DNA from: Agrococcus jejuensis
Lineage (GTDB): Bacteria > Actinomycetota > Actinomycetes > Actinomycetales > Microbacteriaceae
Direction of reading: 5' to 3'
NCBI RefSeq assembly: GCF_900099705.1
Contig: NZ_LT629695.1
Location: 868,001-932,000, forward strand
Length of the DNA stretch: 64,000 bases
Shown one piece after another: positions 9,553 to 51,955 of the stretch. The translations under genes and the position numbers were made by a program. The notes under the pieces are model-generated. The model saw only the letters and a list, made by a program, of their open reading frames with translations, did not search any database and was not told the DNA's origin. The first letter of the stretch is position 1. Each line of letters starts with the position of its first letter.

Positions 9553-9690
9553 GATCGGTCACTCGTTGCCGGTGATTGGTCACTCGATGCCGATGAGTGG
9601 TCAGTAGATGTCGGTGAGTGGTCAGTAGATGTCGGTGAGTGGTCAGTAGATGTCGTCGCCACGGCGTGTCGACGACATCTACTGACCACT
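9553..9690 (+). repeat. Dispersed palindromic repeat family, copy 1 (with tandem left arms)
   Basis: Two GGTCACT-containing units (9558-9585) are followed by three tandem 21-bp copies of the left arm, GAGTGGTCAGTAGATGTCG, beginning at 9595, 9616 and 9637. The last copy pairs with 9670-9690 in a perfect 21-bp stem around an 11-nt loop. The same architecture recurs at 46164-46263 and 51858-51955. The stem arms in this copy read T/A at a position where copy 2 has C/G. It sits between the hydrolase gene and tRNA-Lys. Confidence 0.9.
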
Positions 9691-9719
9691 GTTCGCGTGG
9701 TGGAAGGATTGGACGTCGC

Positions 9720-9795
9720 GGGCCTCTAGCTCAGTCGGTAGAGCAGTGGACTTTTAATCCATCGGTCGTCGGTTCGAGCCCGACGGGGCCCACCA
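9720..9795 (+). tRNA. tRNA-Lys (anticodon UUU)
   Basis: A 76-nt cloverleaf: acceptor stem GGGCCTC with GGGGCCC (one G-U pair), D arm GCTC/GAGC with loop AGTCGGTA, anticodon stem GTGGA/TCCAT with loop CTTTTAA (anticodon TTT), five-base variable loop, T arm GTCGG/CCGAC with loop TTCGAGC, discriminator A and an encoded CCA end. Confidence 0.97.
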
Positions 9796-9833
9796 TCTGA
9801 GCCCACGCAGGAGACGCGCCGTAGCCTCGCCGC

Positions 9834-10070
9834 ATGGCGCACCACATCATGCTCGGCTCGACCCAGCCCTCCTGGGCGCTGCACGCCTCCGAGGACGTCG
9901 ACCAGGTGCGCGAGCGCCTGCGCGTCGCCGCATCCACGCGGCAGGCCGTCGACGTGAAGGTCGTCATCACGGGCACGACGACCCCGACGATCCTCACGAT
10001 CAACCCGGCCCAGCTCGGCTGGTGGGGCTTCCTCGACGCCGACGCGCCGCGCGTCCCAGCAGCAGGATGA
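9834..10070 (+). CDS. Small conserved-looking protein, 78 aa
   Basis: A short protein (MAHHIMLGSTQPSWALHASE at its start) with no membrane segment or signal peptide. It has a helical stretch DVDQVRERLRVAASTR and a strand-rich section DVKVVITGTTTPTILTINPA ending near a WWGF motif. The -10 sequence TAGCCT (9822-9827) lies exactly six bases before the ATG, the leaderless arrangement used by several genes in this window, which supports that it is real. I do not recognise a family. Confidence 0.6.
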   Translation: MAHHIMLGSTQPSWALHASEDVDQVRERLRVAASTRQAVDVKVVITGTTTPTILTINPAQLGWWGFLDADAPRVPAAG

Positions 10071-10196
10071 TGCGCCGACGACGCCGCGGCGAAGGGTGCG
10101 CGACGCGCGGGTGAACGATCGTCGATCGAGCCGCCGATCGGCCTCGAGCGCGTCGCGAGCACGCCACGCTGGACGCGTCGACGTGAAGGAGACGCG

Positions 10197-10916
10197 ATGT
10201 TCGCCAGCATCCTCTCGGGCTTCGGTGGCGCGAGCCTCAACCAGATCCTGAAGGTGGGTGGCGGCGTCCTCACGGTGCTGCTGATCGTGCCCGCGCTGCT
10301 CAAGCTGTTCATCGTCACGGTCGACGAGGGCTGGGCGGCGATCCGCACGCGCAACGGCAGGCCCATCATCCGCAAGCGCGAGCACGCCGTGCGGTACACG
10401 CGCGGCCCGAAGGCCGGGCAGCTGAAGCACCCCGCGAGCCCCGAGGGCGAGCTCGTGGTGCTGCGCCCCGGCACGCACGGCGCGTTCCCGCTGCTGCTCT
10501 GGTACCGCATGGTCGACGTGCGCACGCGCGCCGCCGACCTGCCCGCCCGCCACCTCACGACCGGCACGGGCCACACGTACCTCGTGCAGGCGTCGATCGA
10601 ATGGCGCCCCGAGGTCACGGGCAAGGCGCTCCGCGTCTTCGAGCTCGAGGTGCTCAACGTGCACGAGCGCGTGTCGAACGTCGTCGGCGCCGCGCTGCGC
10701 GACGTCATCCGCGACCTCGGCGCCCCGCCGCTGCCGTCGAACGCCGACATGTCGGACCTCGTGCTCGCCGAGTGCAGGCAGCAGGTGCTCGAGGCGTGCG
10801 GCGTCGAGCTCATCCGCGTCACGCTCACGGGCGACGCGCTCACCGAGGGCTACATGCTCGCGGAGGCGATCCGCACGCGCGAGCCCGGCGACGTCGTCGT
10901 GCCGCTCTCCCGCTGA
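10197..10916 (+). CDS. SPFH/band-7 domain membrane protein
   Basis: A 239-aa protein with one N-terminal hydrophobic segment (about residues 18-42) followed by a band-7/SPFH-type domain: it opens FIVTVDEGWAAIRTRNGRPI, continues with an FPLLLWYRMVDVRTR strand-rich part, and ends with a long helix (LAECRQQVLEACGVELIRVT). Such stomatin-like proteins organise membrane microdomains or hold proteases; here no partner NfeD or FtsH gene is adjacent, so the role is open. AAGGAG lies 6 nt before the ATG. Confidence 0.8.
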   Translation: MFASILSGFGGASLNQILKVGGGVLTVLLIVPALLKLFIVTVDEGWAAIRTRNGRPIIRKREHAVRYTRGPKAGQLKHPASPEGELVVLRPGTHGAFPLLLWYRMVDVRTRAADLPARHLTTGTGHTYLVQASIEWRPEVTGKALRVFELEVLNVHERVSNVVGAALRDVIRDLGAPPLPSNADMSDLVLAECRQQVLEACGVELIRVTLTGDALTEGYMLAEAIRTREPGDVVVPLSR

Positions 10917-10984
10917 CGGGGGATGCCGCATCCAGGCCGGATGCGTAGCGTGGATGCATCGCATCCGACGCGAGGAGCACCACG

Positions 10985-12106
10985 ATGACCGCGTTCCCGG
11001 CCTCCACCTGGACCCGACCCCCGAGGCAGCGCACCGGCGTGCTCGGGCTCGGCCTCCTCGCCATCGCGGTCTCGACGTGGCTGCTCGCGCCGCAGACGCT
11101 CGCCGCCATCGGCCTCGTCGCGACGCCCGACCTCGGCCTGGTCGCCGAGGCGGCGATCTCGGCTGCGGTGCCGGCGTCGATGGTGCTGGCGCTCGGCGCC
11201 GTCGCGTCGCGCGTCGCGTGGCTGCTCGTGCTGGCGATCCCGGTGCTCGCCGTCCACGGCCTCGCGCTCGTCGTCGTCGCGATCGTCGTGGGCGCGAACG
11301 GCGCGCCCGGCGTCGTCGTGCTCGGCCACCTGGGCGACGCCGTCGCCATGGGCATCGCCGTCGCCGCCGTCATCGTGGCGCTCGTCGCGACCGCGGCGGC
11401 CCGCGCGGGCGACCGCCGCGAGGGCGCGACATGGATCGCGGCCGTCGTCGTCGCGGCGATCGCCGGCGCGATCGTCGTCGCGACGCCGTACGTGCGCTCC
11501 CCCGACGGCGGCGCGCTCACGCTGCTGCTGTCCGACACGCTCGTCGTCGCGACGCTGCTCGTCGCCGTGGGCGTCGCGGGCATCCGCCACGCGGCCGCCC
11601 GGTGGGCAGCCGCTGCGCTCGCGCTCGCCGCCGCGACGTGGATCGTGCTGCTCGAGACGGCGGTGCTGCCGTGGGGCACCGCAGGCACCATCGCGATCGC
11701 GATCGTGCGCGCCCTGCTGCTGCTGCTCGGCGGCGCGCTCGTGGCGCTGTCGACGCGGTGGCTCGCGCGACCGCACGGGGTGGCGCCGCCCGTCGTGCCG
11801 GCCCGCGCACCGCATCCCGGCGCCCCGCACGTCGCGCCGCCCGTCGTGGCCGCAGCGCCCGTCGCCCCGCCGGTCGTGCACGCGGCGAGCGTGCCCCCGC
11901 CCGTCGTGCCGAGCCCGGCCGCCGACGCAGCACCCGCATCGGTGGAGCCCGTCGCCGAGGCCCACGCACCGGGCGTGCCCGACGACGTGGATGCCGCGAT
12001 CGACCAGAGCGACCAGGAGGTGCCGACGGATGCCGCGGCACCGGTCGACGAGTCGACCGACGACGCCGACCGCGGCACGGGCGCAGCCGGCACGCAGACG
12101 CCGTAG
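10985..12106 (+). CDS. Polytopic membrane protein with Pro/Val-rich cytoplasmic tail
   Basis: A 373-aa protein with seven to eight hydrophobic segments in its first 260 residues, then a disordered tail of about 110 residues with repeated APPVV/PPPVV motifs and an acidic end. GAGGAG stands about 8 nt before the ATG, and TAGCGT at 10946 can be the -10 box. I recognise no transporter or enzyme signature. The repetitive tail suggests a protein-interaction or stalk role, which is inference only. Unlike its neighbours it has a normal leader. Confidence 0.75.
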   Translation: MTAFPASTWTRPPRQRTGVLGLGLLAIAVSTWLLAPQTLAAIGLVATPDLGLVAEAAISAAVPASMVLALGAVASRVAWLLVLAIPVLAVHGLALVVVAIVVGANGAPGVVVLGHLGDAVAMGIAVAAVIVALVATAAARAGDRREGATWIAAVVVAAIAGAIVVATPYVRSPDGGALTLLLSDTLVVATLLVAVGVAGIRHAAARWAAAALALAAATWIVLLETAVLPWGTAGTIAIAIVRALLLLLGGALVALSTRWLARPHGVAPPVVPARAPHPGAPHVAPPVVAAAPVAPPVVHAASVPPPVVPSPAADAAPASVEPVAEAHAPGVPDDVDAAIDQSDQEVPTDAAAPVDESTDDADRGTGAAGTQTP

Positions 12107-12204
12107 TCGACGCGGGCCGTCGCCGACCACGCAGGGCGCGGTCGCCGGCGCAACCCCGTCGCGTCGTTGCCCGCATCGACGCCGTCGCTCCGTATGGTTC
12201 GAGG

Positions 12205-12882
12205 ATGGAGCATCCCGTCGCCGAGGTCGTCCTGCCGTGTCTCGACGAGGCGGCAGCGCTCCCCCGCGTGCTCGGTGCGCTGCCCCCTGGCGTGCGGGCG
12301 ATCGTCGTCGACAACGGCTCGACCGACGGATCGGCCGACGTGGCACGGGCGCACGGCGCGATCGTGGTGCACGAGTCGCGGCGCGGGTTCGGCTCCGCGG
12401 CGCACGCGGGGCTGCTGGCGGCGACGGCCGACGTCGTGGCGTTCTGCGACGCCGACGGCTCGTTCGACACCGCGGAGCTCGTGCGGGTCATCGACCCGAT
12501 CGTCGACGGCTCCGCCGACCTCGTGCTCGCACGCCGCCGACCTGCGCGCTACTCGGCGTGGCCGACGCACGCGCGCATCGCGAACCTGGCGCTCGCCCGC
12601 ATCATCCGCCGCGCGACCGGGCTGCCGATGCACGACCTCGGCCCCATGCGCGCCGCGCGTCGCGAGTCCTTGCTCGCCCTCGACCTGCAGGACCGCCGCA
12701 GCGGCTATCCGCTCGAGATGCTGCTGCGCGCCGTGCAGGAGGGATGGCGGGTGCAGGAGACGGAGGCGACCTACCTGCCTCGCACGGGGCGCTCGAAGGT
12801 CACGGGCACCGTGCGCGGCACCATCACGGCGATCCGCGACATGCGAGGCGTCATCGCGCGTGTCGGCGAGGTGCGCGCATGA
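12205..12882 (+). CDS. Family 2 glycosyltransferase (DPM1/dolichyl-phosphate-sugar-synthase-like)
   Basis: A 225-aa cytoplasmic GT-A transferase. Visible are the start EVVLPCLDEAAALPRVL, the VVDNGSTDGS nucleotide-binding segment, the metal-binding DXD-type motif in AFCDADGSFD, and the acceptor-side segment HDLGPMRAARRE. It lacks the C-terminal membrane helices of full polyprenol-phosphate transferases. The start is ATG at 12205, since TATGGT stands exactly six bases upstream (leaderless). It overlaps the DUF2064 gene by ATGA and the methyltransferase follows, a three-gene operon. As I recall, M. tuberculosis Rv0539-Rv0540 has the same GT2-DUF2064 pair near pnp and galE3, so the locus seems conserved. 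Confidence 0.88.
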   Translation: MEHPVAEVVLPCLDEAAALPRVLGALPPGVRAIVVDNGSTDGSADVARAHGAIVVHESRRGFGSAAHAGLLAATADVVAFCDADGSFDTAELVRVIDPIVDGSADLVLARRRPARYSAWPTHARIANLALARIIRRATGLPMHDLGPMRAARRESLLALDLQDRRSGYPLEMLLRAVQEGWRVQETEATYLPRTGRSKVTGTVRGTITAIRDMRGVIARVGEVRA

Positions 12883-13571
12883 CGACGCTCATCGTGATCG
12901 CGAAGGAGTGCATCCCCGGCAAGGTCAAGACGCGGCTGCACCCGCCGTACTCGCTCGAGCAGGCTGCCGACATCGCGAGCGCGAGCCTGCACGACACCCT
13001 CGCGACGCTCGCCGACGTGCCCGCCACGCGGCGCGTGCTGTGCTTCGACGGCACCACGCCACCGCCCGCGGCCGCCGCGTACGAGGTCGTGCACCAGGTC
13101 GACGGCGACCTCGACGAGCGGCTCGCGGCGATCTTCGACGACGTCGACGGCGACGCGGTGCTCGTCGGCATGGACACGCCGCAGCTCGACGCCGCCGCCG
13201 TCGCCGCCGCCTTCGCGCCGTGGCCGGAGGGCGTGGATGCGTGGTTCGGCCCTGCATCCGATGGCGGCTTCTGGCTGCTGGGGCTGCGCGCGATGCCGGG
13301 CCGCGGAGACCTCATCCGCGGCGTGCCGATGTCGCGCGACGACACCGGCACGATCCAGCGCGCGCGACTCGTGGATGCCGGGCTCGGCATCCGCGATCTC
13401 GAGGCGTTGCGCGACATCGACGACGCCGAGGCGCTCGCCGCCGTCGTCGCCCGCATCCCCCGCAGTCGCACGGCTGCGGCCGCCCGCGCCTCGGGCGTGG
13501 CAATCCGCACGGTCGCGACGGAACGAACCCACGGCACGCCCAGCGCGACGCGACCGGAGACCCGGTCGTGA
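12879..13571 (+). CDS. DUF2064 / TIGR04282-type nucleotidyl- or glycosyltransferase-like protein
   Basis: A 230-aa GT-A fold protein of the CofC-like DUF2064 group. The characteristic opening is TTLIVIAKECIPGKVKTRL; the middle contains GMDTPQL and ASDGGFWLLGL, which are the conserved family signatures. Members occur beside GT2 enzymes and have been linked by annotation to arsenosugar or rSAM-associated glycosylation, but no function is proven to my knowledge. Start ATG overlaps the preceding stop (ATGA) and its stop overlaps the following GTG (GTGA), so the three proteins are probably made together. The last 30 residues are Arg/Thr rich and likely disordered. Confidence 0.88.
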   Translation: MTTLIVIAKECIPGKVKTRLHPPYSLEQAADIASASLHDTLATLADVPATRRVLCFDGTTPPPAAAAYEVVHQVDGDLDERLAAIFDDVDGDAVLVGMDTPQLDAAAVAAAFAPWPEGVDAWFGPASDGGFWLLGLRAMPGRGDLIRGVPMSRDDTGTIQRARLVDAGLGIRDLEALRDIDDAEALAAVVARIPRSRTAAAARASGVAIRTVATERTHGTPSATRPETRS

Positions 13572-14290
13572 CCGACCCGCCGGGAGCGTCCGACGAGAGG
13601 GAGCTCGTGACCGACTTCGGCGAAGGTGGCCAGGCGCCGTACGAGCACGCCCTGCGCTCCGGCAGCACCGCGATGCTGCGCCTGCGCGAGGTCGGCGGCT
13701 CCGACGAGGGCGTGACGAGCCTCATCGACGTGGCACGCTTCACGGCGTCGGCAGACGACGTCGACCTGTCGATCGTCGAGCGCGGCGAGGGTCCCGTCAT
13801 CGACCTCGGGTGCGGGCCCGGCCGCATGGTGCGCGCCGCGATCGACCTGGGTCGGCGCGCGATCGGCATCGACGTGTCGGCCTCGGCCGTGGCCCTGGCG
13901 CGCAGCCAAGGCCTGCCCGTGCTGCAGGCGTCGCTCTTCGACCCGCTGCCCGGCGAGGGCATGTGGGGTCAGGCGCTGCTGCTCGACGGCAACCTCGGCA
14001 TCGGCGGCGACGTGCCGCGCCTCCTGCGACGTGCGAGCGAGCTCGTGCACGACGACGGCACCGTCGTGGTGGAGGCGCATCCCGTCGCCGGCCACTGCCG
14101 GCGCTTCCAGGCGGTGCTCGTCGACGAGCACGGCGGCGCCAGCGAGACGTTCCCGTGGGCGGAGATGGGATGCGATGCGCTCGTCGCCGCGGTGCGCGAC
14201 GCCGGGCTCATCGTCAGGGCGCAGTGGTCGGCGGAGTGCCGGACGTTCGTCGAGATCGCACGAACCCGATCCCGGCCGCGAGCAGCGTGA
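13568..14290 (+). CDS. Class I SAM-dependent methyltransferase
   Basis: A 240-aa Rossmann-fold methyltransferase with motif I VIDLGCGPGRMV, the acidic motif IGIDVSASAVALAR, and a motif-IV region MWGQALLLDGNLGIGG. The GTG start overlaps the DUF2064 stop. The 3' end overlaps the convergent membrane-protein gene (stop at 14214) by 77 bp, so the last 25 residues are encoded opposite that gene. The substrate is unknown; operon context with two GT-A proteins points to a sugar or lipid-linked acceptor. Confidence 0.87.
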   Translation: MTDPPGASDERELVTDFGEGGQAPYEHALRSGSTAMLRLREVGGSDEGVTSLIDVARFTASADDVDLSIVERGEGPVIDLGCGPGRMVRAAIDLGRRAIGIDVSASAVALARSQGLPVLQASLFDPLPGEGMWGQALLLDGNLGIGGDVPRLLRRASELVHDDGTVVVEAHPVAGHCRRFQAVLVDEHGGASETFPWAEMGCDALVAAVRDAGLIVRAQWSAECRTFVEIARTRSRPRAA

Positions 14291-14663
14291 CGGCGGCGAT
14301 CGCCGCCCACAGCAGCAGCAGGTCGCGCACGTAGTCGCCGGCGAGCACGCTCTCGTTGCGTGCGCCGCGCGCCTGGGCGATGACGAGCGGCACGGCCAGG
14401 AGCGTCAGGCACGCGCCGACTCCCCACGCCATGCGGATGACGGTGCGCGACCGGTCGGGCAGCACGTGCCCGACGCGGTCGAGCGTGCGGGTGGTGAGCG
14501 TCGTCGCGGGCGCGAGGATGCCGTCGTGCACGATGATCGCGCCGGCGAGCCACGCGCCGAGCGACAGCAGCTGGTCGAACCGCTGCGTGACGAGCAGCAG
14601 CACGACGCCGAAGCCGGTCGCGCCGACCCCCGCCGCGAGCAGTGCGATGCGCGCGATCCTCAT
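14214..14663 (-). CDS. Small four-helix membrane protein
   Basis: A 149-aa protein with four hydrophobic segments (about residues 5-25, 35-52, 75-95 and 110-132) and a charged C-terminus ending in RRTSGTPPTTAP-type sequence. Its ATG overlaps the stop of the molybdopterin oxidoreductase gene (ATGA), so it is the third gene of that operon. No family recognised. Its end overlaps the convergent methyltransferase gene by 77 bp. It could be a membrane partner of the oxidoreductase or of the glycan locus. Confidence 0.72.
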   Translation of the reverse strand: MRIARIALLAAGVGATGFGVVLLLVTQRFDQLLSLGAWLAGAIIVHDGILAPATTLTTRTLDRVGHVLPDRSRTVIRMAWGVGACLTLLAVPLVIAQARGARNESVLAGDYVRDLLLLWAAIAAVTLLAAGIGFVRSRRTSGTPPTTAP

Positions 14664-19465: not shown

Positions 19466-19477
19466 CGCGTTCCGAAC

Positions 19478-28873: not shown

Positions 28874-28902
28874 GAAAGGCATCTCCTTCAGATGTGCGGA
28901 TG

Positions 28903-28978
28903 GCCCAGGCGCGCGACCGAGTCTCAGGTCGGCCGCTCCCCGGTGGTCCCCCACCCAAGCGCCAGTCGCGGCCGCTGC
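28903..28978 (-). promoter_or_regulatory. ZTP (pfl) riboswitch controlling glyA-folD
   Basis: On the minus strand: the arms CGGCCGC and GCGGCCG enclose the conserved GACUGGCG, a GGUGG/CCACC hairpin and CCGGGGAGC; a spacer hairpin follows, then the second conserved strand GCGCCUGGGCC, which forms the ligand-binding pseudoknot. These are the hallmark pieces of the pfl/ZTP motif, and glyA/folD are its usual targets. It ends 21-30 nt before the Shine-Dalgarno, suggesting translational control. Confidence 0.92.
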
Positions 28979-29091
28979 CGATGCTACTCGTCGGCGCCGA
29001 CGGCATCCACATGCGCACGCCGTGTGACGCGACATCCTCGACGCTGCGCTCGAGCTGCTCGATCGCCGGCAGCGCCTCGTGCTCCGACGCG

Positions 29092-42548: not shown

Positions 42549-42567
42549 TCGAGCACCCCTGACGACT

Positions 42568-42597: not shown

Positions 42598-42628
42598 TGT
42601 CGCGTGCTGGGGGCTTCGTCGGCTGAGG

Positions 42629-45600
42629 TCAGCGGAAGTCGCGCGACGGCGGCGCCGCCGCGTCGAACGGCACGATCTGGTCGGCCATCATCGTCACGAC
42701 GCCCTGCGAGTGCTGCAGGATGCCGCGCACCTTGAGCGCCGCCGAGTGCTTCGCGATGCTGCGGTACCGCTTCCACAGCCCGACCGAGCAGAGCACGTTG
42801 AGCATGCCCGTCTCGTCCTCGATGTTCATGAACGTGACGCCCTGCGCCGTCTGCGGCCGCTGCCGGTGCGTGACGATGCCCGCCGCCCACCGGCGCCGCC
42901 CGGGCTCGAGGTCGACGAGGCGCGCGATGGGCACGACGCCGTCGGCGTCGAGCGCCGCCCGCGCATGCCGCACGGGATGGTCGTCGGGGCTCACGCCCGT
43001 CGCCCAGATGTCGAGCGCCGTCTGCTCGGCCTCCGACAGGATCGGCAGCAGCGGCGGCTGCACCGTCACCGACGTGCCCTCGAGCTGATCCTCGCGCTCG
43101 GTGGATGCGGGGGCCGCGAGCCACAGCGCCTCGCGCCGCTCGAGGCCGAGGCGCTCGAACGCGCCCGCGGTCGCGAGCGACTCGAGCTGCCTGCGATCGA
43201 GCCTCGCGCGCCGCGCGACGTCGTCGATGCCCGTGAACGGCGACTCCTCGCGCGCCGCGACGATGCGCTCGGCGTCGGCCTCGCCCACGTGCGCGACGCT
43301 CGACAGCCCCAGCCGCACCGCGAACCCGCGATCGCGCCGATGCCGTGCGTGGTCGTTGGGGCCGGGCGTCCACGGCACCTCCGGCTGATGGGGCTCGAGG
43401 CACGCATCGTCGCCCGCGACGCGGTCGCCGTGGGCCTCGAGGTCGGCGGTCGCCGCCGAGCGCACGATGTCGGGCCCCAGCACCTCCACGCCGTGCCTGC
43501 GCGCATCCGCGCTGAGCGTCTGCCCCGACCAGAAGCCCATGGGCTGCGCGCGCAGCAGGCCCGCGAGGAACGCCGCCGGGTGGTGCAGCTTCAGCCACGA
43601 CGACGCGTAGACGAGCTTGCCGAACGCGAGCGAGTGCGACTCCGCGAAGCCGAAGCCGGCGAACGCCTCGATCTTGCGCCAGATGCTCTCGGCGAGGTCG
43701 CCGACGATGTCGTTCGCCTGCATGCCTGCGAAGAGCCGATCGCGCAGCTGCGCGACGCGCTCCTTGCTGCGCTTCGACGCGATCGACCGCCGCAGCTCGT
43801 CGGCCGCCGCCGCGTCGAAGTCGCCCACGAGCACCGCGATCTGCATGAGCTGCTCCTGGAACAGCGGCACGCCGAGCGTGCGCGCGAGCGCATCCTCGAG
43901 CAGCGGATGCGGGTACGTGATCGGCTCCTGCCCGCTGCGCCTGCGCAGGTAGGGGTGCACGGCGTCGCCCTGGATGGGCCCGGGCCGGATGAGCGCGATC
44001 TCGATGACGAGGTCGTAGAACGAGCGCGGCCTGAGCCTCGGCAGCGTGGCGAGCTGCGCCCGCGACTCGACCTGGAAGACGCCCACGGCATCCGCGGCGC
44101 ACAGCATGTCGTAGACGCCCGCCTCCTCTGCGGGGATCGTCGCGAGCGTCCACTCCTCGCCGAGGTGCTCCCTCGCGATGTCCATCGTGTGCTGCATCGC
44201 GCCGAGCATGCCGAGCCCCAGCAGGTCGAACTTCACGAGCCCCATCCACTCGCAGTCGTCCTTGTCCCACTGCAGCACCGTGCGATCCACCATGCGCGCG
44301 GGCTCGATGGGGCTCACGTGGCCGACGGGCTCCTTCGTGAGCACCATGCCGCCCGAGTGGATGCCGAGGTGGCGCGGCGCGTGCAGGAAGTCGTCGGCGA
44401 GCGACAGCACGGGATCGGGGATGCCCTCGGTGCCGTCGACCGACGGCGCGCTCCACCCCTCGACGCGCTTCGACCACGCGTTCTGCTGCCCGACGGCGTA
44501 GCCGAGCGCCTTCGCCGCGTCGCGCACCGCCGACTTCGGCCGGTACGTGATGACGTTGGCGACCTGCGCCGCGTTGCGCCTGCCGTACCGCTCGTAGACG
44601 TGCTGGATGACCTCCTCGCGGCGCGCGGCGTCGAAGTCGATGTCGATGTCGGGCTCCTCGGTGCGGATCATCGAGATGAACCGCTCGAACGGCAGCCGGT
44701 AGAGGATCGGGTCGACGGCCGTGATGCCGAGGATGAAGCACACGGCGCTCGCCACCGCCGAGCCGCGGCCCTGGCAGAGGATGCCGCGCGAGTGGGCGAA
44801 GTCGGCGATCTCGCTGACGATGAGGAAGTAGCCGGCGAAGCCCTTGTCGTCGATGAGGCGCAGCTCGTGGGCGAGGCGCTCGTCGACCTTGCGCTGATCG
44901 ACGTGCGGGTCGCCTGGCGGGTAGACGCGGTCGCGCCGCTCGGCGACGAGCTGCCGCAGCCACGACATCTGCGTGTGACCCTCGGGCACCTCGGTGTCGG
45001 GCAGGCTCGGGCTCGCGGCCCTGAGCGAGAATGCGAGGTCGCGGCCGATGCCTGCGGCCCGCTCGACGACGCCGTCGAACTGGCGGAAGCGCCACGCCAT
45101 CTCGGCGCCCGACCGCAGCCTCGGCACGCCGCCTGCAGGCAGCCATCCGTCGAGCTCGTCGATGCTGCGGCGCGCGCGCACGGCCGCCATCGCATCGCCC
45201 AGCAGCTGCTGCCTGGGGCTCGCGACGTGCGCGTTCGTCGTCGCCACCACCGGCAGGCCGCGCCGCTCGGCGAGGGTCGCGAGCGCCTGGTTGCGCTCCC
45301 CGTCGTCGGGCTGGCCGAGGTCGGTGAGCTCGACCATGACGCCGTCGCGGCCGAAGAGCGACACGAGCCGGTCGAGCTCGACGCCTGCCGCATCCGCCCC
45401 CTCCCGCTCGAGCGCACGGCGCACGGCGCCCTTGCGGCAGCCCGTGGACACCATCCACTCCCCCGCGCGCTCGGCGACCTGCTCGAGGTGCAGGATGGGG
45501 CGGCCCTTCTCGCCGCCCGCGAGGTACCCGTCGGTGAGCGTCGCGGCGAGCCTGCGATACCCCTCCGCGCTGCGGGCGAGCACGAGCAGGTGGTCGCCGA

Positions 45601-45979
45601 CCGGGTCGGCGACGCCGTTCTGGGGCTCGGGCAGCTCGAGGCTCAGCTCGGCGCCGAAGATCGTCGCGAGGCCCACGTGGTCGGCGGCCTCGGCGAAGCG
45701 CACGGCGCCGTAGAGGCCGTCGTGGTCGACGAGCGCGAGCGCCTCGAGGCCCAGCGCCGTCGCCTCGGTGACGAGCTGCGCGGGGCTCGAGGCGCCGTCG
45801 AGGAACGAGTAGTGCGAGTGCGCGTGCAGCTCGGCGTACGGCACGATGCGCTCGGGGTCGGGTCTGCTGCGTCGTTCGCGCACCTCGGGGTTCGGCGTCA
45901 GCGAGGGCGCGTCGGTGGCGCGGCCGTCGAGGATCGCCTCGAGCTCGCGCCACGGCATCGGCGGATTGCGCCAGCCCAT
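42629..45979 (-). CDS. dnaE2: Error-prone DNA polymerase III alpha subunit DnaE2 (ImuC)
   Basis: A 1116-aa C-family polymerase that performs mutagenic translesion synthesis with ImuA' and ImuB. The PHP domain starts YAELHAHSHYSFLDG; the polymerase active-site region reads RTEEPDIDIDFDAARREEV; AGFGFAESHSLAFG is the helix-hairpin region; and the OB domain is near the C-terminus (WAAGIVTHRQRPQT). It is shorter than replicative DnaE1 and lacks the tau-binding tail, as usual for DnaE2. ATG at 45979 has GGAGGGGG upstream. A LexA box at 46109-46124 about 130 bp upstream implies SOS induction. Confidence 0.96.
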   Translation of the reverse strand: MGWRNPPMPWRELEAILDGRATDAPSLTPNPEVRERRSRPDPERIVPYAELHAHSHYSFLDGASSPAQLVTEATALGLEALALVDHDGLYGAVRFAEAADHVGLATIFGAELSLELPEPQNGVADPVGDHLLVLARSAEGYRRLAATLTDGYLAGGEKGRPILHLEQVAERAGEWMVSTGCRKGAVRRALEREGADAAGVELDRLVSLFGRDGVMVELTDLGQPDDGERNQALATLAERRGLPVVATTNAHVASPRQQLLGDAMAAVRARRSIDELDGWLPAGGVPRLRSGAEMAWRFRQFDGVVERAAGIGRDLAFSLRAASPSLPDTEVPEGHTQMSWLRQLVAERRDRVYPPGDPHVDQRKVDERLAHELRLIDDKGFAGYFLIVSEIADFAHSRGILCQGRGSAVASAVCFILGITAVDPILYRLPFERFISMIRTEEPDIDIDFDAARREEVIQHVYERYGRRNAAQVANVITYRPKSAVRDAAKALGYAVGQQNAWSKRVEGWSAPSVDGTEGIPDPVLSLADDFLHAPRHLGIHSGGMVLTKEPVGHVSPIEPARMVDRTVLQWDKDDCEWMGLVKFDLLGLGMLGAMQHTMDIAREHLGEEWTLATIPAEEAGVYDMLCAADAVGVFQVESRAQLATLPRLRPRSFYDLVIEIALIRPGPIQGDAVHPYLRRRSGQEPITYPHPLLEDALARTLGVPLFQEQLMQIAVLVGDFDAAAADELRRSIASKRSKERVAQLRDRLFAGMQANDIVGDLAESIWRKIEAFAGFGFAESHSLAFGKLVYASSWLKLHHPAAFLAGLLRAQPMGFWSGQTLSADARRHGVEVLGPDIVRSAATADLEAHGDRVAGDDACLEPHQPEVPWTPGPNDHARHRRDRGFAVRLGLSSVAHVGEADAERIVAAREESPFTGIDDVARRARLDRRQLESLATAGAFERLGLERREALWLAAPASTEREDQLEGTSVTVQPPLLPILSEAEQTALDIWATGVSPDDHPVRHARAALDADGVVPIARLVDLEPGRRRWAAGIVTHRQRPQTAQGVTFMNIEDETGMLNVLCSVGLWKRYRSIAKHSAALKVRGILQHSQGVVTMMADQIVPFDAAAPPSRDFR

Positions 45980-46108: not shown

Positions 46109-46124
46109 TCGAACGTATGTTCGA
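46109..46124 (-). promoter_or_regulatory. LexA (SOS) box upstream of dnaE2
   Basis: TCGAACGTATGTTCGA is a perfect 16-bp palindrome and matches the actinobacterial/Bacillus-type SOS box GAAC-N4-GTTC. On the minus strand it includes TACGTT, a possible -10 box, so LexA would cover the promoter. The same 16-mer precedes imuA at 51635. Confidence 0.9.
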
Positions 46125-46163
46125 CCTCCGACGCGAACTCGCCTCAAGGTGCGCTGGAGGGTT

Positions 46164-46263
46164 GGCGATTGGTCACTTGTGGTCGATGAGTGGCCACTTG
46201 ATGCGCGGCGAGTGGTCAGCAGATGTCGTCGACACGCCGTAGCGACGACATCTGCTGACCACT
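46164..46263 (+). repeat. Dispersed palindromic repeat family, copy 2
   Basis: Two GGTCACT/GGCCACT units (46166-46200) are followed by a 21-bp perfect inverted repeat: left arm 46211-46231, 11-nt loop ACACGCCGTAG, right arm 46243-46263. Relative to copy 1, both arms carry a complementary T-to-C/A-to-G change (AGCAGATG with CATCTGCT), so pairing is kept. It lies 40 bp beyond the SOS box of dnaE2. Confidence 0.9.
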
Positions 46264-46347
46264 GTTGGCGCAGGTGGGATGCGCCGACGGGCCACGCCGA
46301 CGGCGCGCCTGGGCGGTCGTGTCGGAGGTCGGTGCGACCCTCATGCC

Positions 46348-46578: not shown

Positions 46579-46606
46579 CCGCTCCCCGGCGACGCCGCCT
46601 GAGCGA

Positions 46607-46981
46607 CTAGGCCGACTGCGCCCGCTCGTCGCGGGTCGACGCCTGGCTGCGCCACCACCGCCGCTCGCCGCGCACGAGCAGCCAGAGCGCGCCGAGGCCG
46701 ACGACCAGCGAGCCGAGCACGAGCGCGACGCCCTGCGCGACGAACGCGAGCACGGCATCCGCGGCGACGCCGTCGGCGAGGCGCGCGGGCACCCCAGCGA
46801 CGAGTCCCACGACCCCGGCGACCGCGACCATGAGCGCGGCGACGGCCACGACGAGGCCGAGCACCTGCTGCCACGTGACGCGGCGCTGCGGTGCTGGCTC
46901 GGCTGCGCGCACGGGCATCTCGGCGGGTGCGGCGAGGTCGCGATCGCGCACGACGTCGTCGCTGCGCTCGCTCTGGACCAT
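46607..46981 (-). CDS. Small two-helix membrane protein, 124 aa
   Basis: An N-terminal charged cytoplasmic part of about 35 residues, two long hydrophobic segments (about 40-66 and 75-103) and a basic C-terminus (RGERRWWRSQ). No family recognised. GATCAT, a -10-like box, is exactly six bases before the ATG. Located in the SOS locus between dnaE2 and the four-module protein, but without a LexA box of its own. Confidence 0.68.
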   Translation of the reverse strand: MVQSERSDDVVRDRDLAAPAEMPVRAAEPAPQRRVTWQQVLGLVVAVAALMVAVAGVVGLVAGVPARLADGVAADAVLAFVAQGVALVLGSLVVGLGALWLLVRGERRWWRSQASTRDERAQSA

Positions 46982-47032
46982 CCGTCGATGATCCCACGTC
47001 CGCGCGCCGGTCCACGACGCACGCGCGGCGTC

Positions 47033-48994
47033 TCAGCCGTCGGCGTCGAACGCGTCCATCGTCTCGACGGGCACGCTCGCACGCCGCAGCACGTCGCGCT
47101 CGTCGGCGCGCAGCGGGCCGCGCTCGCGGTGCGAGAGCACGCCATAGGTGCGCACCGGATCGCGAGTGCGAGCGAGCCGTAGGGCCAGCGCCTCCCTCTC
47201 GTCGGCCGTCGTCGCGCCGTCGACCGACGCACCCCAGCGGGCGACGTCGTCGGGTCGACCGAGCCGCCTGGAGGCGTCGACGAGCACGTGGCGCGCGGTG
47301 CGACGCGTGCGCGCAACCCGCGACTCCAGCGCGCCGATCGCGAGGGAGCGCCGTTCCGCCGGATCCTTGAGACCAGGCAGCCGCCACCGGAGCTCACGGG
47401 CGTACGGGTCGCGTCGCGGCGCTCGTGCCTCGAGGCGATCGCCGAGCACGAACGCCGCCCAGCCGACCAGCCCTGCGACGACCACCGTGCTGGCGCAACC
47501 GGCGATGGTGGGCCAGAGCCAGCCGGGCGGCTCGATCGAGAGCAGACCGAGCACGCCGCCGACGGGCAGGAGCAGCACGCCGACGACGAGCGCAAGCACG
47601 CCGACGATCGCGACGAGCGATCCCACTGTCACGAGCGGATGCTCGGGCCGTTCGCCCCGCCGCTCGAGATCCGCGACGGCCTTCGGCAGTCGCTCGCCAT
47701 ACGCGAGGCCCAGGTAGGTGCGCGTGGCATGCGTGGGCCGCTGTTCGAGCAGGTCGAGGCGCAGCGCACGCACCTCGTCGTCCGTCGCCCAGCCGTCGTG
47801 CGCGACGCCCCAGCGACCCGCCTGCTCGGGCTTGCCCAGCGCGCGGTAGTGCTCGGCGAGCAGTCGACGGACCTCGGGGTTCGGGGCCCGAGTCGCCGCG
47901 CGCACGATCGCCGCGCGCTCGTGTCGCAGCTGCTCGGTCGGCGTCGCGAGCAGCTCGTCGAGCACGCGCGCGACGCGCTCGTGCTCGATCTCCGTGAGCC
48001 GGTCGGCGTTCGTCATCCACCGCCGGTCGATGGTCTCCGCCGCGACGCCCGCCCGGATGAGCGCATCGCGCTCGTCGGCGCCGAGCCGGCTCGGCGCACG
48101 CTCGGTGCGCTGCTCGAGCTCGAGCATCCACTCGTCGTCCGCGCGCAGCGTCGCGGCGAACCGCGTGCGCTCGTCGGGCGTCGTCAGGCCGTCGACCGCG
48201 ATGCCCCAGCGCCCGGCCTCCGCCGGTCGGCGTCGCTCGCGGGCGAGCTCGACGAGCATCCTGCGCACCGGCTCCTGCATGTCGGGCGTCCAGGTCTGAT
48301 CCAGCCAGCCGCGCAGCAGCGCATGCCGCTCGCCGTGCAGCACGAGCGACGGCAGCACCGCCTCCACGCGTCGCTGCGCGTCCTGCTGGAGCCGACGACG
48401 CCAGTCGGTGCGCGACGGTCGCGGATGCCGTCGCAGCCACAGGAGACCCACGAGCCAGATGGCACCCGCGACGAGCGCCTCGACTCGCACGTCGCGCAGC
48501 GCATCGAGCACCTCCACGCCCTGCGTCATGGCCACGATGGCGCGGGCGATGGCGGTGCCCCACCAGAGCAGGCCGCCGAGCCACGCGATCCCGGCGAGGA
48601 GGCGCATGCGACTGCCGCGAGCCGCGGCCGGCCGCTCGGGCACCTCCATGAGATCGGCGATGCTCGCCGGCGCCTGCTCGCGCGAGCCGAGGTGGAGGTA
48701 TCCCCGCGCCATGCCGCTCGCGACGCGGGCGGCGAGCACGCGGCGCAGTGCGCGCAGCTCGCTCGCACGCACCCATCCCGGGATCGAGATGCCCCATCGT
48801 GCTGCCTGGTCCAGCGCACCGATCGTCCGGTAGTGCTCGGCGAGCATGCGCCGAATGGCCGGATCTGCTGGGATGCCCTTCCACAGCATGGCTCGACGCT
48901 CGTGACGCAGCTCGGGCGTCGGCATCGCACGCGACCGTTCGAGCAGGGCCGCGAGACGAGTGGCGTCGCGGGGTCGCTGCTCGGATCCGGTCAT
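47033..48994 (-). CDS. Large protein with four repeated DUF6584-like helical modules and two membrane-helix pairs
   Basis: A 653-aa protein of unknown function made of four related modules. Each holds a helix like RRLLAEHYRALG followed by xxQAGRWGVxxDG and a T-x-D-E-(x)n-LRL helix: RRMLAEHYRTIGALDQAARW (about residues 48-70), VRRMLVELARERRRP (about 245), VRRLLAEHYRALGKPEQAGR (about 375) and ARHVLVDASRRLGRP (about 568). Two membrane-helix pairs interrupt the array (about 130-190 and 450-510). The module resembles the actinobacterial DUF6584 domain, from memory. A GATGCT -10-like box lies six bases before ATG 48994, on the same strand as imuB. Function unknown. Confidence 0.78.
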   Translation of the reverse strand: MTGSEQRPRDATRLAALLERSRAMPTPELRHERRAMLWKGIPADPAIRRMLAEHYRTIGALDQAARWGISIPGWVRASELRALRRVLAARVASGMARGYLHLGSREQAPASIADLMEVPERPAAARGSRMRLLAGIAWLGGLLWWGTAIARAIVAMTQGVEVLDALRDVRVEALVAGAIWLVGLLWLRRHPRPSRTDWRRRLQQDAQRRVEAVLPSLVLHGERHALLRGWLDQTWTPDMQEPVRRMLVELARERRRPAEAGRWGIAVDGLTTPDERTRFAATLRADDEWMLELEQRTERAPSRLGADERDALIRAGVAAETIDRRWMTNADRLTEIEHERVARVLDELLATPTEQLRHERAAIVRAATRAPNPEVRRLLAEHYRALGKPEQAGRWGVAHDGWATDDEVRALRLDLLEQRPTHATRTYLGLAYGERLPKAVADLERRGERPEHPLVTVGSLVAIVGVLALVVGVLLLPVGGVLGLLSIEPPGWLWPTIAGCASTVVVAGLVGWAAFVLGDRLEARAPRRDPYARELRWRLPGLKDPAERRSLAIGALESRVARTRRTARHVLVDASRRLGRPDDVARWGASVDGATTADEREALALRLARTRDPVRTYGVLSHRERGPLRADERDVLRRASVPVETMDAFDADG

Positions 48995-49040
48995 CCGCCG
49001 AGCATCCCACGGTCGAGACTCCGCGTCGCGCCGCGACGCG

Positions 49041-50693
49041 TCAGTCGTACCGCCCCTCCGCGCGCCACCCGGCGGCGTCGCCCAGCAGCACCCACGCATC
49101 CCCTGCGCCGTCGACGACCTGGATGCGCGCGAGCGCCTCGACGTGCGCCCCCGCGCGCATGCGCAACGGCCACGGCCCCGCCCACGCCGCGACGCGTCGC
49201 CGGTCGCCCGACGGCGTGCGGAACCACGTCGGCGGACGGATGCGCTCGCCCGTCCCGACCTCCCCGCCGTCGGCATCCAGCAGCACCACCGGCTGCGGCG
49301 GACGGAACACCGTCGCCGGCCGCGGCTCGGGCAACGACCCCGGCCACGGGCCCTCGCGCGCCTCGGCGACCGCATCGCCCCACGGCGTCAGCACGCCACG
49401 CTCGGCGAGCAGCCGCCCGCCGCCGAGGCTCGCCACGACGACGCCCTCACGCCCCAGCACCCCCTGCAGGCGCTCGATGACGCCGCGCGTGCGCTCGTCG
49501 ACGCCGCGCCCGCCCCACAGGCCGGGCATGTGCTCGGTGTCGCGCTCGAGCCGCTCGGGCGTGATGCGCACCTCGACGAGCGCGCTGTCGAGGCCGCTCT
49601 CGGCCAGCTGCCACCTGGCGCGGTCGACGACGTCGCGCGCGCGGAAGAAGCCCGGCTTGCGCCACGTGCGCTCGCTGATGCCGCCGAGGTCGGCGCGCAG
49701 CAGGATGCGCACCTCGGCCACGACGAGGCGGCGGGCGGCGAGCTCGGCGACGTACGCATCCGCCCGGCTCTGCAGCGCGAATCCCAGCTCCTCGCCGCCC
49801 TCGATGCCGGGCTCGAACTCGAGGGCGAGCGCGTCGGGCGGATGGTCGGATCCCGGCTCGACGCGGCGATCGTCGAGGCCGCGGGCGCGCTGCAGGTCGC
49901 GCAGCCCCTCGGCGCCGAAGCGGTCGCGCACGCTCGCGTCGGGCAGCGCCGCGAGGTCGCCGAGCGTGCGCAGGCCGAGACGCAGCAGCATGCCGGCGAG
50001 CTCGCCGCCGAGCACCGTCACCGGCACGGGCGCGAGGAACGCGCGGGAGGCGCCGGGGTCGACGATGCGGATGGGGGCGGGGTGCTGGCCGTCGGCTTCG
50101 GCGGGGCTCGCGCCGACTTCCGGCACGAGGTGACGCTGAGCGGGGGTTCGTGTGCGATATGCGGACGAAGGCTCGCTCCGCGTCACCTCGTGCCCGGCTG
50201 CAGCAGTCGCCGGCGCACGGTGCGGCTCCTCCACGGCCACCCGCTCGGCGAGCTCGGCCGTGAACCGGTCGTCGGCCACGCCCACGCGCACGCGCAGGCC
50301 GAGCGGCGCGAGGGCGGCGACGATCGCCGCGACCGCCTCGCGCTCGCCGCCGTAGAAGCGAGCGGCGCCGCGCATCGGCAGCGCGAGCGCGCCGTCGCCG
50401 AGCCCCTGCACCCCCGGCACCACGGACTCGACCGCCCGGATGACGTGCGCGAACGCGAGCACCTCGCCCACGGCATCCGCATCCGAGAGCACGAGCGACG
50501 GCGCACCGGCCTGCGCGTCGCGCACCCGCTGCCCCACGCGCACGCCCGCCGCGCGGGCGAGGTCGTCGCAGGCGACGATGCGGTGCAGGTGTGCCGTCGC
50601 CACGGGCACGCCGCCCGGCAGCTCGCCCGCGGCGCGCGCCACCTCGACCGACCAGTCGGGCACGCGCACGACGGCGATGCGACGGGTGGTCAC
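49041..50693 (-). CDS. imuB: ImuB, Y-family polymerase-like mutasome protein
   Basis: A 550-aa inactive Y-family polymerase relative that bridges DnaE2 and the beta clamp. It opens RIAVVRVPDWSVEVARA, where active Y polymerases have a metal-binding DMD motif; here the acidic residues are missing, as typical of ImuB. It keeps GVRVGQRVRDAQA, LRVRVGVADDRFTAELAERV and a helix-hairpin part LGLRTLGDLAALPDASVRDR. An unusual linker (about residues 165-192) is encoded by an inverted repeat. GTG 50693 has AGGAG just upstream. The separate imuA gene and LexA box lie upstream. Confidence 0.9.
   Translation of the reverse strand: MTTRRIAVVRVPDWSVEVARAAGELPGGVPVATAHLHRIVACDDLARAAGVRVGQRVRDAQAGAPSLVLSDADAVGEVLAFAHVIRAVESVVPGVQGLGDGALALPMRGAARFYGGEREAVAAIVAALAPLGLRVRVGVADDRFTAELAERVAVEEPHRAPATAAAGHEVTRSEPSSAYRTRTPAQRHLVPEVGASPAEADGQHPAPIRIVDPGASRAFLAPVPVTVLGGELAGMLLRLGLRTLGDLAALPDASVRDRFGAEGLRDLQRARGLDDRRVEPGSDHPPDALALEFEPGIEGGEELGFALQSRADAYVAELAARRLVVAEVRILLRADLGGISERTWRKPGFFRARDVVDRARWQLAESGLDSALVEVRITPERLERDTEHMPGLWGGRGVDERTRGVIERLQGVLGREGVVVASLGGGRLLAERGVLTPWGDAVAEAREGPWPGSLPEPRPATVFRPPQPVVLLDADGGEVGTGERIRPPTWFRTPSGDRRRVAAWAGPWPLRMRAGAHVEALARIQVVDGAGDAWVLLGDAAGWRAEGRYD
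50122..50194. repeat. Inverted repeat inside imuB coding sequence
   Basis: GGCACGAGGTGACGC (50122-50136) and GCGTCACCTCGTGCC (50180-50194) are perfect inverted arms 43 nt apart, with an inner GAGC/GCTC pairing. They lie in-frame within ImuB between the palm-like and clamp-binding parts, adding about 25 residues (HEVTRSEPSSAYRTRTPAQR region). Confidence 0.8.
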
Positions 50694-50723
50694 GGGAGGC
50701 TCCTGCGTGGGCGCTGACGCGGG

Positions 50724-50963
50724 GTGGAGCCGTTGCGAGGTGCGGTTCGCGGTTGCGAGGTGCGCTTGCTGCGCTCAGGTGCGGCTCGTGATTGCGAGGT
50801 GCGGTTGCTGCGTTCGGGTGCGGTTGCAACCGCACCTGAACGCACGAAGCGCACCTCGGAACCGCAGCCGGGGTGGTCACCGCGCGCCGAGGTGCGGTTG
50901 GTGCGCTCGGATGCGGAAGGAGCCGCACCCGAGCGCACGAAGCGCACCTCGGAGCCGGGGCGC
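50724..50963. repeat. Cluster of GAGGTGCGGTT-type palindromic repeats between imuA and imuB
   Basis: Units GCGAGGTGCGGTT and TGCGTTCGGGTGCGGTT are repeated in direct order and then in reverse complement (AACCGCACCTGAACGCACG, AGCGCACCTCGG) to form two large palindromes, about 50751-50860 and 50888-50963. A related inverted segment occurs at 53390-53480. The 310-bp gap 50694-51003 contains no gene. Confidence 0.75.
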
Positions 50964-51003
50964 GAGCATCCCCGCATCCGCAGCGCACCGCATCCCGCCG
51001 CCG

Positions 51004-51624
51004 TCACCGCGCACCGCCCAGGTCGACGACCGCGCGCCTGGGCACGCGGTCGCCCGCCGACACCTCGACCTCGAGCCGGGCGGTGCGGATGCGGCCGAGG
51101 CCGTCGTCGGCGCCCGCCCAGGTGGCGCCGAGCGTGCGGATGCGGCTCGCCGGCTGCGGCCAGTCGCCGAGCACGAGCAGGCAGCCGTCGGCGCCGCGCA
51201 CGCGGGCGGCGAGGCGCGCGGCCTCGGCGGGAGCGAGCCGCGACGGGGCGGCGGCGAGCACGACGGGCAGCACCTCGGCGAACCCCGCGACCGCCGACGC
51301 CCACGCCTCCCCCGGCTGCGGCACGAGCACGACGCGGTCGACGGGCACGCCCGCATCGGCCGCCGCCTCGACGCCGACGTCGGCGAGGCCGATCATCGCG
51401 CCCCATCCGCCCGGCGGCAGCGCCGCGGCGAGCATGCGCAGCGCGAGCGAGCGCGAGTCGACCGCGTGCACGCCGCCGATGCGCAGCGCGGGCAGCACGC
51501 GCTGCAGCGCGGCGGGCGTGGGTAGGCCGACGACCTCGACGGCGGTCGACTCCATGCCGCGCATGCGCGAGCGCAGCGCCTCGATCGTCGCGGCCTTGCC
51601 GCGGTCGAGGTCTGCGATCGTCAC
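51004..51624 (-). CDS. imuA: ImuA' mutasome accessory protein
   Basis: A 206-aa RecA-like protein that lacks a Walker A loop, the actinobacterial ImuA' type. It shows LALRMLAAALPPGGWGAMIG, VPVDRVVLVPQPGEAWA and LADVGVEAAADAG, with the C-terminal region TARLEVEVSAGDRVPRRAVV. GTG start at 51624; a 3-codon leaderless ORF overlaps it by GTGA, and a perfect LexA box lies 10 bp upstream of the GTG. Together with imuB (310 bp away) and dnaE2 it forms the SOS mutagenesis cassette. Confidence 0.86.
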   Translation of the reverse strand: MTIADLDRGKAATIEALRSRMRGMESTAVEVVGLPTPAALQRVLPALRIGGVHAVDSRSLALRMLAAALPPGGWGAMIGLADVGVEAAADAGVPVDRVVLVPQPGEAWASAVAGFAEVLPVVLAAAPSRLAPAEAARLAARVRGADGCLLVLGDWPQPASRIRTLGATWAGADDGLGRIRTARLEVEVSAGDRVPRRAVVDLGGAR

Positions 51625-51632
51625 GCATCCAT
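51621..51632 (-). CDS. Leaderless three-codon upstream ORF before imuA
   Basis: ATG-GAT-GCG-TGA (MDA) begins five bases after the -10-like TACGTT that is embedded in the LexA box, and its stop overlaps the imuA GTG (GTGA). The layout copies the six-codon ORF at 31975-31995, which supports a real translation-coupled upstream ORF. Confidence 0.5.
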   Translation of the reverse strand: MDA

Positions 51633-51634
51633 GA

Positions 51635-51650
51635 TCGAACGTATGTTCGA
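51635..51650 (-). promoter_or_regulatory. LexA (SOS) box at the imuA promoter
   Basis: TCGAACGTATGTTCGA, identical over 16 bp to the box before dnaE2. On the minus strand its TACGTT can be the -10 box for imuA, so LexA binding would block the promoter directly. The 386-bp gap 51625-52010 holds this site, repeat copy 3 and the malQ promoter; a 98-codon plus-strand reading frame starting in the box is not convincing. Confidence 0.9.
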
Positions 51651-51857
51651 ATGCGGCAAGTCGGTGCGGCGTGTCCTCGAGCGACTCGTGCCCCGGATGC
51701 GCGCGTCGCGGAACGTGCGGATCGCGCGCTCGAGCGGCGGCTGCGGACGCTCGCTACGGGCCGTCTCGCTCGAGCATCCCCGGCACCCCCGACACGGCGC
51801 TCGCGCGCCGCTCATCCGCCGCCCGAATCCCTCCCGCGCATCCCGCACCGCGCCAAC

Positions 51858-51955
51858 AGTGGTCAGTAGATGTCGCCGTAGCGGCGTGTCGGCGACATCT
51901 ATTGACCACTCACCGCGCAACAAGTGACCAATCACCGGCAACACGTGACCCATCG
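51858..51955 (-). repeat. Dispersed palindromic repeat family, copy 3 (inverted orientation)
   Basis: Left arm 51858-51878, 11-nt loop TAGCGGCGTGT, right arm 51890-51910 (21 bp, one G-T mismatch), followed by two units, AAGTGACCAATCACCGGCAA and ACGTGACCCATCG. Read on the minus strand it has the same order as copies 1 and 2. Both arms share a complementary T/A-to-C/G substitution (GTCGCCG with CGGCGAC). It lies about 210 bp from the imuA SOS box. Confidence 0.9.

What the first reader, a model, noticed from the sequence alone, without database searches (positions are those of the whole stretch)
9553..51955. A three-copy dispersed palindrome family whose arms change in complementary pairs
Copies at 9553-9690, 46164-46263 and 51858-51955 share one architecture: two GGTCACT-type units, then a 21-bp inverted repeat with an 11-nt loop. 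The arms differ between copies but the changes are complementary: copy 2 has AGCAGATG/CATCTGCT where copy 1 has AGTAGATG/CATCTACT, and copy 3 has GTCGCCG/CGGCGAC where copies 1 and 2 have GTCGTCG/CGACGAC. Pairing is thus kept, which argues for a selected hairpin rather than plain decay. I know no named family with this sequence.
Basis: seen in the sequence. Interest (0 to 1): 0.75.

Follow-up and report, generated by a model that had tools for sequence, protein, structure and literature searches.

The report
Dispersed gene-gap hairpins that swap sequence
Short mirror-image DNA repeats sit between genes of an actinobacterium and its close relatives; their positions are inherited, but their sequence is often replaced while the two arms stay able to pair, much like known bacterial hairpin repeats but without the usual partner enzyme being found.

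Summary
In detail: three copies with 21-bp arms and 11-nt loops, and the stated paired changes are there (copy 3 also has one G.T mismatch). "Three copies" is an undercount. A covariance model finds about 29 places in this 3.4-Mb Agrococcus genome, dozens of hits in two sister species, and weaker hits in up to 25 of 85 Microbacteriaceae genera and in six other families of the order. Pairing is kept well beyond chance: 238 two-sided changes across 64 copies, 111 in shuffles.

Orthologous gaps are the most telling. At 15 of 21 shared sites the species carry different sequence types, although DNA nearby is about 91% identical (elements 57%). Loops are inverted at 4 of 15 sites. Elements are enriched at gene ends, but window copies 2 and 3 lie upstream of genes. 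I found no RAYT domain, Rfam match or U-tract, and no clear excess of G-U over A-C mismatches.

Best reading: a REPIN-like, non-autonomous palindromic repeat, homogenised by copying between loci and by template switching, and tolerated or used as a 3'-end hairpin. "Selected hairpin" is only partly supported. Enzyme and function are inferred, not shown.

The parts
9552..9637 (+). copy 1: four satellite half-units (GATCGGTCACTCGTTGCC.., GATTGGTCACTCGATGCC.., then GAGTGGTCAGTAGATGTCGGT twice), spaced about 21 nt
   Evidence: sequence; two of the units are exact matches to the arm word
9638..9690 (+). copy 1 hairpin: 21-nt arms, perfect pairing, loop CCACGGCGTGT
   Evidence: model score 78.7 bits on the - strand; predicted -41.6 kcal/mol on either strand
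9720..9795 (+). tRNA-Lys (ttt) downstream of copy 1; the gap between the hydrolase gene (7885-9543) and this tRNA holds a different hairpin type in G007
   Evidence: orthologous site
46164..46210 (+). copy 2: two satellite half-units (GATTGGTCACTTGTGG.., GAGTGGCCACTTGATG..)
   Evidence: sequence
46211..46263 (+). copy 2 hairpin: 21-nt arms, perfect pairing, loop ACACGCCGTAG
   Evidence: 77.4 bits; -41.3 / -41.8 kcal/mol
51858..51910 (-). copy 3 hairpin: inverted, 21-nt arms with one G.T mismatch, loop TAGCGGCGTGT on +
   Evidence: 74.9 bits on the - strand; -40.3 / -33.6 kcal/mol
51911..51955 (-). copy 3: two satellite half-units (..AAGTGACCAATC, ..CACGTGACCCATC)
   Evidence: sequence

Best explanation
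A non-coding, REPIN-like dispersed palindromic repeat of gaps between genes. The core is a 53-nt inverted repeat: conserved ends (TGGNCA..TGNCCA), arms that vary in pairs, and often a conserved centre CGACACGCC. Satellite half-units of about 20-21 nt stand in the same register on one or both sides. SHOWN here: dispersal, pairing kept with arm turnover, fixed geometry, inherited positions, wholesale change of sequence type at the same sites, loop inversions, enrichment at gene ends. INFERRED: (1) copies are rewritten from other copies in the same genome, by an unknown recombination or transposition activity; (2) template switching between the arms repairs mismatches and flips loops; (3) at gene ends the hairpin is kept because any strong hairpin there helps to end or protect transcripts. 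The third step is the least certain, and it does not explain the elements that lie between divergent genes.
For: Dispersal. Pairing: 238 two-sided cells against 111.1 +/- 9.0 in shuffles, covariation score 0.397 against at most 0.142 in slid registers, 64 sequences; in a smaller set of 16, 29 cells against 12.3. At the orthologous site 914211 the G013 arms differ from G000 at 5 pairs, all compensated. Geometry: direct spacing peaks at 20-21, convergent spacing at 23, 43-44, 64-65 and 84-86, no peak for divergent pairs (overlapping loci were counted more than once). Turnover: 21 orthologous groups; mean element identity 57% against 90.6% for DNA 120-900 bases away, 34 comparisons; 49 of 56 elements are closer to a copy in their own genome than to any ortholog (biased, since there are more paralogs to choose from); the ortholog's mean fractional rank among all elements of the other genome is 0.43, where 0.5 means no memory, 100 directed comparisons. 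Gene ends: in tandem gaps 32 of 39 are nearer the upstream stop, p = 7e-5, and 21 of 63 element gaps are convergent against 9 of 82 others, p = 0.0016. Slot idea: at the dppC 3' gap 12 of 17 testable Agrococcus genomes have a hairpin above all 60 shuffles, 9 of them not of this family.
Against: No partner enzyme was found. 15 of 87 elements lie between divergent genes and 4 inside called genes; window copies 2 and 3 themselves lie upstream of genes. In family-free gaps strong hairpins are not confined to gene ends: convergent 3 of 9, divergent 7 of 29, tandem 6 of 45. At the dppC gap 5 of 17 have no such hairpin. No U-tract follows the hairpins (T is 15.6% of the next 12 nt, 39 rows). Five of 21 sites kept their type. 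The orthologous sites of three species are not independent of one another.
Confidence: 0.5

Rival explanations
1. RNA hairpins under direct selection (intrinsic terminators or mRNA 3'-end stabilisers); the paired changes are ordinary two-step compensation, and the repeats are only a source of hairpins.
For: Near stop codons, with convergent enrichment; about -34 to -42 kcal/mol for the three copies; unrelated hairpins fill the same dppC gap in other species. Terminators without a U-tail are claimed for actinobacteria (passage of PMC8355165).
Against: No clear G-U over A-C excess (24 against 18); no U-tract; a title in the reference list of PMC8355165 says mycobacterial RNA polymerase needs a U-tract (title only seen). 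Does not explain loop inversion, shared types inside a genome, or elements between divergent genes.
Confidence: 0.2
2. Arrays of DNA-protein binding sites: a protein binds the half-units with TGGNCA on one face of the helix every two turns, and arm sequences follow changes in its specificity genome-wide.
For: 20-21 bp phasing and fixed convergent distances; ends and centre conserved, species-specific types at the same sites.
Against: Several types coexist in one genome (G000: W, C, D), and the arm sequence between the conserved words varies while pairing holds, which a fixed protein would not require. No candidate protein was identified or sought systematically.
Confidence: 0.15
3. MITE-like remnants of a transposon with multiple terminal repeats (IS21- or Mu/Tn7-like), both ends brought together.
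For: Convergent arrays of about 21-bp units look like such ends (resemblance recalled, not from a call).
Against: No IS21-type IstB in the own genome: the only above-cut-off hit overlaps dnaA. In the genus 1 of 24 genomes has IstB at E <= 1e-30, and the two loci there show no such arrays by a simple motif scan. Positions are shared between species. No match in the plasmid or phage collections at E <= 1. Other transposase families were not searched.
Confidence: 0.1

Closest known systems
REPINs (REP doublets forming hairpins) moved by RAYT transposases
   Same: Dispersed, extragenic; two inverted conserved ends with a variable hairpin between; compensatory changes on both sides common; tandem clusters exist (PMC3116915, passages).
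   Different: No RAYT domain in the own genome. Longer perfect stems (about 18-21 bp here; GTAG and CGTC REPs 5-13 and 8-9 bp, PMC3733652 passage). Phased half-units. Positions inherited while sequence type is replaced.
GTAG/CGTC-tagged REPs
   Same: Palindromic, many families, hypothesised roles in termination and mRNA stability (PMC3733652 passages).
   Different: No unpaired GTAG or CGTC tag at the foot seen; the paper's passages list no Actinobacteria (the word actinobacter occurs 0 times in its main text).
Quasipalindromes corrected by template switching
   Same: Arm homogenisation and spacer inversion, as seen here (PMC8604942, PMC8794818 passages).
   Different: That is a mutational process, not a repeat family; it does not explain dispersal or sharing of types between sites.
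Repeated terminator-like hairpins of actinobacteria (TRIT of M. tuberculosis, recalled; my search did not surface that paper)
   Same: Many similar hairpins after genes, no U-tract.
   Different: Comparison rests on recall; some elements here lie between divergent genes.

Membership tests
REP/REPIN | dispersed, extragenic, palindromic, inverted conserved ends | tested here: met
   (83 of 87 elements not inside called genes)
REP/REPIN | RAYT (Y1_Tnp, PF01797) in the same genome | tested here: not met
   0 of 1 genome at E <= 0.001; the control rang in 5 of 14 named genomes. Not tested in the other genomes.
REP/REPIN | GTAG or CGTC unpaired tag at the foot | tested here: inconclusive
   None seen at the foot in the 64-row alignment by eye; GTAG occurs inside the paired arms of some types
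MITE of a DDE transposon | parent element with the same ends and a transposase | tested here: inconclusive
   only IstB (PF01695) searched:
MITE of a DDE transposon | target-site duplication at an empty/occupied site | tested here: inconclusive
   no clean empty site found; G013 lacks the family at the tRNA-Lys site but has another short hairpin there
Intrinsic terminator | GC-rich hairpin at gene 3' end | tested here: inconclusive
   enriched there but 15 of 87 lie between divergent genes
Intrinsic terminator | U-tract after the hairpin | tested here: not met
   T 15.6% of 12 nt, at most 3 T in 8, 39 rows
Any Rfam 15 RNA family | match at gathering score | tested here: not met
   window: only a tRNA and a ZTP riboswitch; 10 element loci: 0

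The most novel reading that the evidence does not exclude
Positional inheritance without sequence inheritance: a set of chromosomal hairpin slots is kept for as long as species of a clade exist, while an active, unidentified process rewrites the hairpins in place, so that whole genomes drift from one palindrome type to another with pairing intact. The conserved centre CGACACGCC and ends TGGNCA would be what that process, or its enzyme, recognises.
Probability: 0.3. Interest if true: 0.75.

Novelty: new variant of a known kind. Interest (0 to 1): 0.52.

Why it matters
Paired changes are widely taken as proof of a selected RNA structure. Here they occur together with loop inversion and genome-wide swapping of sequence types at inherited sites, so the family is a natural test of how far template switching and copying between loci can imitate, or maintain, structural selection. 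It also points to an undescribed REPIN-like system, without a RAYT in the genome at hand, in Microbacteriaceae and perhaps more widely in the order.

Tried and rejected
IS21-type ends: rejected for lack of IstB. RAYT: not found in the own genome. Plasmids and phages: no match at E <= 1 (BLAST's low-complexity filter was on). A scan of genome contigs for GTGGTCAGYAGATGTCG gave 18 stretches, one of them Agrococcus jejuensis; the other 17 come from scattered taxa by title, and I did not inspect them. Replication-origin bias: dnaA lies at 1,674,941, the 29 places look sparse near the terminus, but for 21 clusters the KS test gives p = 0.12, so I drop it. Empty-site comparison: the protein searches for the genes beside copies 1 and 3 found orthologs in only 3 of 24 genomes each, so there was no outgroup. 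Hairpins after genes in general: not stronger at 3' ends outside the family. Literature: the words of the arms occur in 4 papers, unrelated by title, none opened; searches for Agrococcus or Microbacteriaceae repeats and REP in Actinobacteria showed no description of this family in their listings; the Agrococcus pavilionensis genome paper has no occurrence of repeat, palindrom or terminator. Absence from print is claimed only for these searches and this library.

Dropped rows: 6 of 39 tandem rows before the G-T/A-C count, and 6 of 70 G000/G007/G013 rows before the 64-row alignment (fewer than 13 pairs in the 53-nt register; some are true elements with 54-nt spacing). For G007 23 places and for G013 17 places were fetched, not every listed hit; the listing was capped. 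My gene caller is a codon-usage script, and it missed a small ORF beside copy 2, so that copy was counted as tandem.
Full report
What is there. The three copies read as described. Each is a 53-nt inverted repeat (21-11-21) with half-units of about 20-21 nt beside it: four before copy 1, two before copy 2, two after the inverted copy 3. Copy 3 has one G.T mismatch in the arms. The arm word occurs 9 times in the window with up to 3 mismatches, against 0.76 expected.

Where it occurs. The window is G000:C1:868001-932000 of a 3,400,078-base genome. An ungapped alignment of 16 hairpins (A2) gave model R1. In the genus R1 hits 14 of 24 genomes at E <= 0.1: 51 hits in G000, 43 in G007 and 35 in G013 counted on both strands, and 0 to 7 in the rest. 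These three are one clade: DppC is 96-97% identical between G000 and the two others, 70-75% to the remaining matches. In the family R1 hits 32 of 249 genomes and 25 of 85 genera at E <= 0.01; in the order 15 of 297 genomes at E <= 1e-4, the own one included, from six other families. E-values of R1 are rough, and some weak hits may be chance. In the listed loci of other genera the arms differ greatly from those of the window (for example GAGTTGGCAGTTGTTGTCGCC, GAGGTGCTCGTAGATGCTGTC) but the length of about 51-55 nt recurs, and in several (L111, L118, L123, L124, L204) so does GGCGTGTC or a close form in the loop. R1 itself favours that length and loop, so common descent beyond the genus is not proven.

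Pairing. In 64 copies from three species 15 of 21 pairs change on both sides, in 238 cells against 111.1 +/- 9.0 after shuffling; the covariation score is 0.397 against 0.162 shuffled and at most 0.142 in slid registers. The count of pairs with a two-sided change alone is not above shuffles (15 against 14.2). At the site of copy 2 the G013 arms differ from those of the window at 5 pairs and all 5 are compensated (G013 has one extra loop base). Oriented by tandem genes, mismatches are 24 G-T, 18 A-C and 77 others in 693 pairs from 33 elements: no clear sign of RNA pairing as the constraint, but a small sample.

Geometry. Distances between TGGNCA-type words peak at 20-21 (direct) and at 23, 43-44, 64-65, 84-86 (convergent); divergent pairs show no peak (overlapping loci inflate the counts).

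Position. Of 87 elements 39 lie in tandem, 29 in convergent and 15 in divergent gaps, and 4 inside called genes. In tandem gaps 32 of 39 are nearer the upstream stop (median 29 against 107 bases). Element gaps are 30 tandem, 21 convergent, 12 divergent; other gaps of 75 bases or more in the same stretches are 45, 9 and 28; Fisher p for convergent = 0.0016. The three species are not independent. Copy 1 follows a hydrolase gene and precedes tRNA-Lys. Copies 2 and 3 do not follow genes: copy 2 lies upstream of a DNA polymerase III alpha-type gene (42629-45979, -), copy 3 between a gene on - (51004-51624) and a 4-alpha-glucanotransferase gene (52011, +).

Inherited sites, replaced sequences. Flank comparison gives 21 groups of orthologous sites (groups assembled by hand, printed). 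By nearest of four type strings that I made by eye, with the register-shifted rows judged by eye, 15 of 21 sites carry different types in different species, 5 the same (914211, 919858, 1127360, 176484, 2104231) and 1 is unclear (2039748). For example 2142016 is D in G000, C-like in G007 and B in G013, with the same flanks. Identity between G000 and orthologous elements averages 57%, and 90.6% for DNA 120-900 bases away (34 comparisons). 49 of 56 elements are closer to a copy in their own genome than to an ortholog; this comparison favours paralogs because there are more of them. The fairer test is the rank of the ortholog among all elements of the other genome: mean 0.43, with 19 of 100 below 0.05, so there is little but not zero memory. 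The loop word is labelled in two or more species at 15 sites; at 4 (877638, 1403684, 2142016, 2804339) it is inverted.

One slot across the genus. Downstream of dppC, 22 of 24 genomes gave a match. 17 gaps could be tested: 12 hold a hairpin above all 60 shuffles, 3 of this family and 9 of other sequences, such as CGTCGAACTTCCCCGAAC.. in G015 and relatives of it in G008 and G019; 5 do not (G021, G002, G006, G010, G004); one gap was too short and four had no next gene called. So that gap tends to hold a hairpin of whatever sequence. But outside the family, hairpins above 40 shuffles occur in 3 of 9 convergent, 7 of 29 divergent and 6 of 45 tandem gaps, which is not a gene-end pattern. One slot is one case.

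How it may work. Shown: a dispersed palindrome with paired arm turnover, fixed register, inherited places and type replacement. Inferred: copying between loci plus template switching. Template switching is known to homogenise arms and invert spacers (passages of PMC8604942) and to make and keep hairpins (passages of PMC8794818; there loop inversion with compensation was rare). It does not spread types between sites; for that an unknown copying activity is needed. No RAYT domain, no IstB and no Rfam match were found. A role at transcript ends is suggested by position, but U-tracts are absent and the divergent cases do not fit.

What is known. REPINs are the nearest kind: inverted ends, a hairpin, compensatory changes, clusters (PMC3116915 passages). 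The membership feature RAYT was tested in the own genome and not met, so I do not file this as a REPIN; it may still work like one.

Noticed in passing
window 46109-46124 and 51635-51650: Two identical exact copies of TCGAACGTATGTTCGA, the form I recall for the actinobacterial LexA (SOS) box, upstream of a DNA polymerase III alpha-type gene (42629-45979, -) and of the gene at 51004-51624 (-); with an impB/mucB/samB-family gene at 49041-50693 this looks like an imuA-imuB-dnaE2 mutagenesis cluster (names inferred). Copies 2 and 3 stand just beyond the two boxes.
   Followed up: partly
L032 2200-2520 and 4530-4830; L033 3480-3640; L035 1800-2120; L042; L079: Further arrays with other half-units (ACTGGTCACTCGTTGCG.., ACTGGTCGCAGTTGCACC..), often two different arrays in one gap, with the same 53-nt convergent spacing. 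Not included in the counts.
   Followed up: partly
L222, L224, L226 (downstream of dppC in G015, G008, G019): A second palindrome family, CGTCGAACTTCCCCGAAC..GTTCGGGGAAGTTCGACG, whose arms also differ in complementary pairs between species.
   Followed up: no
L090, L091, L092, L101, L104, L105: In other Agrococcus genomes the words TGGTCA and CGACACGCC, end and loop in the window copies, lie next to each other inside one arm (GGGTGGTCACGACACGCC..). Unexplained.
   Followed up: no
window 28896-28979 (-): A ZMP/ZTP riboswitch aptamer (Rfam RF01750, 51.5 bits).
   Followed up: no
window 53983-55823: A run of about ten direct copies with 159-165-nt spacing inside a gene called at 53594-55912 (-), a repeat-rich protein.
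   Followed up: no
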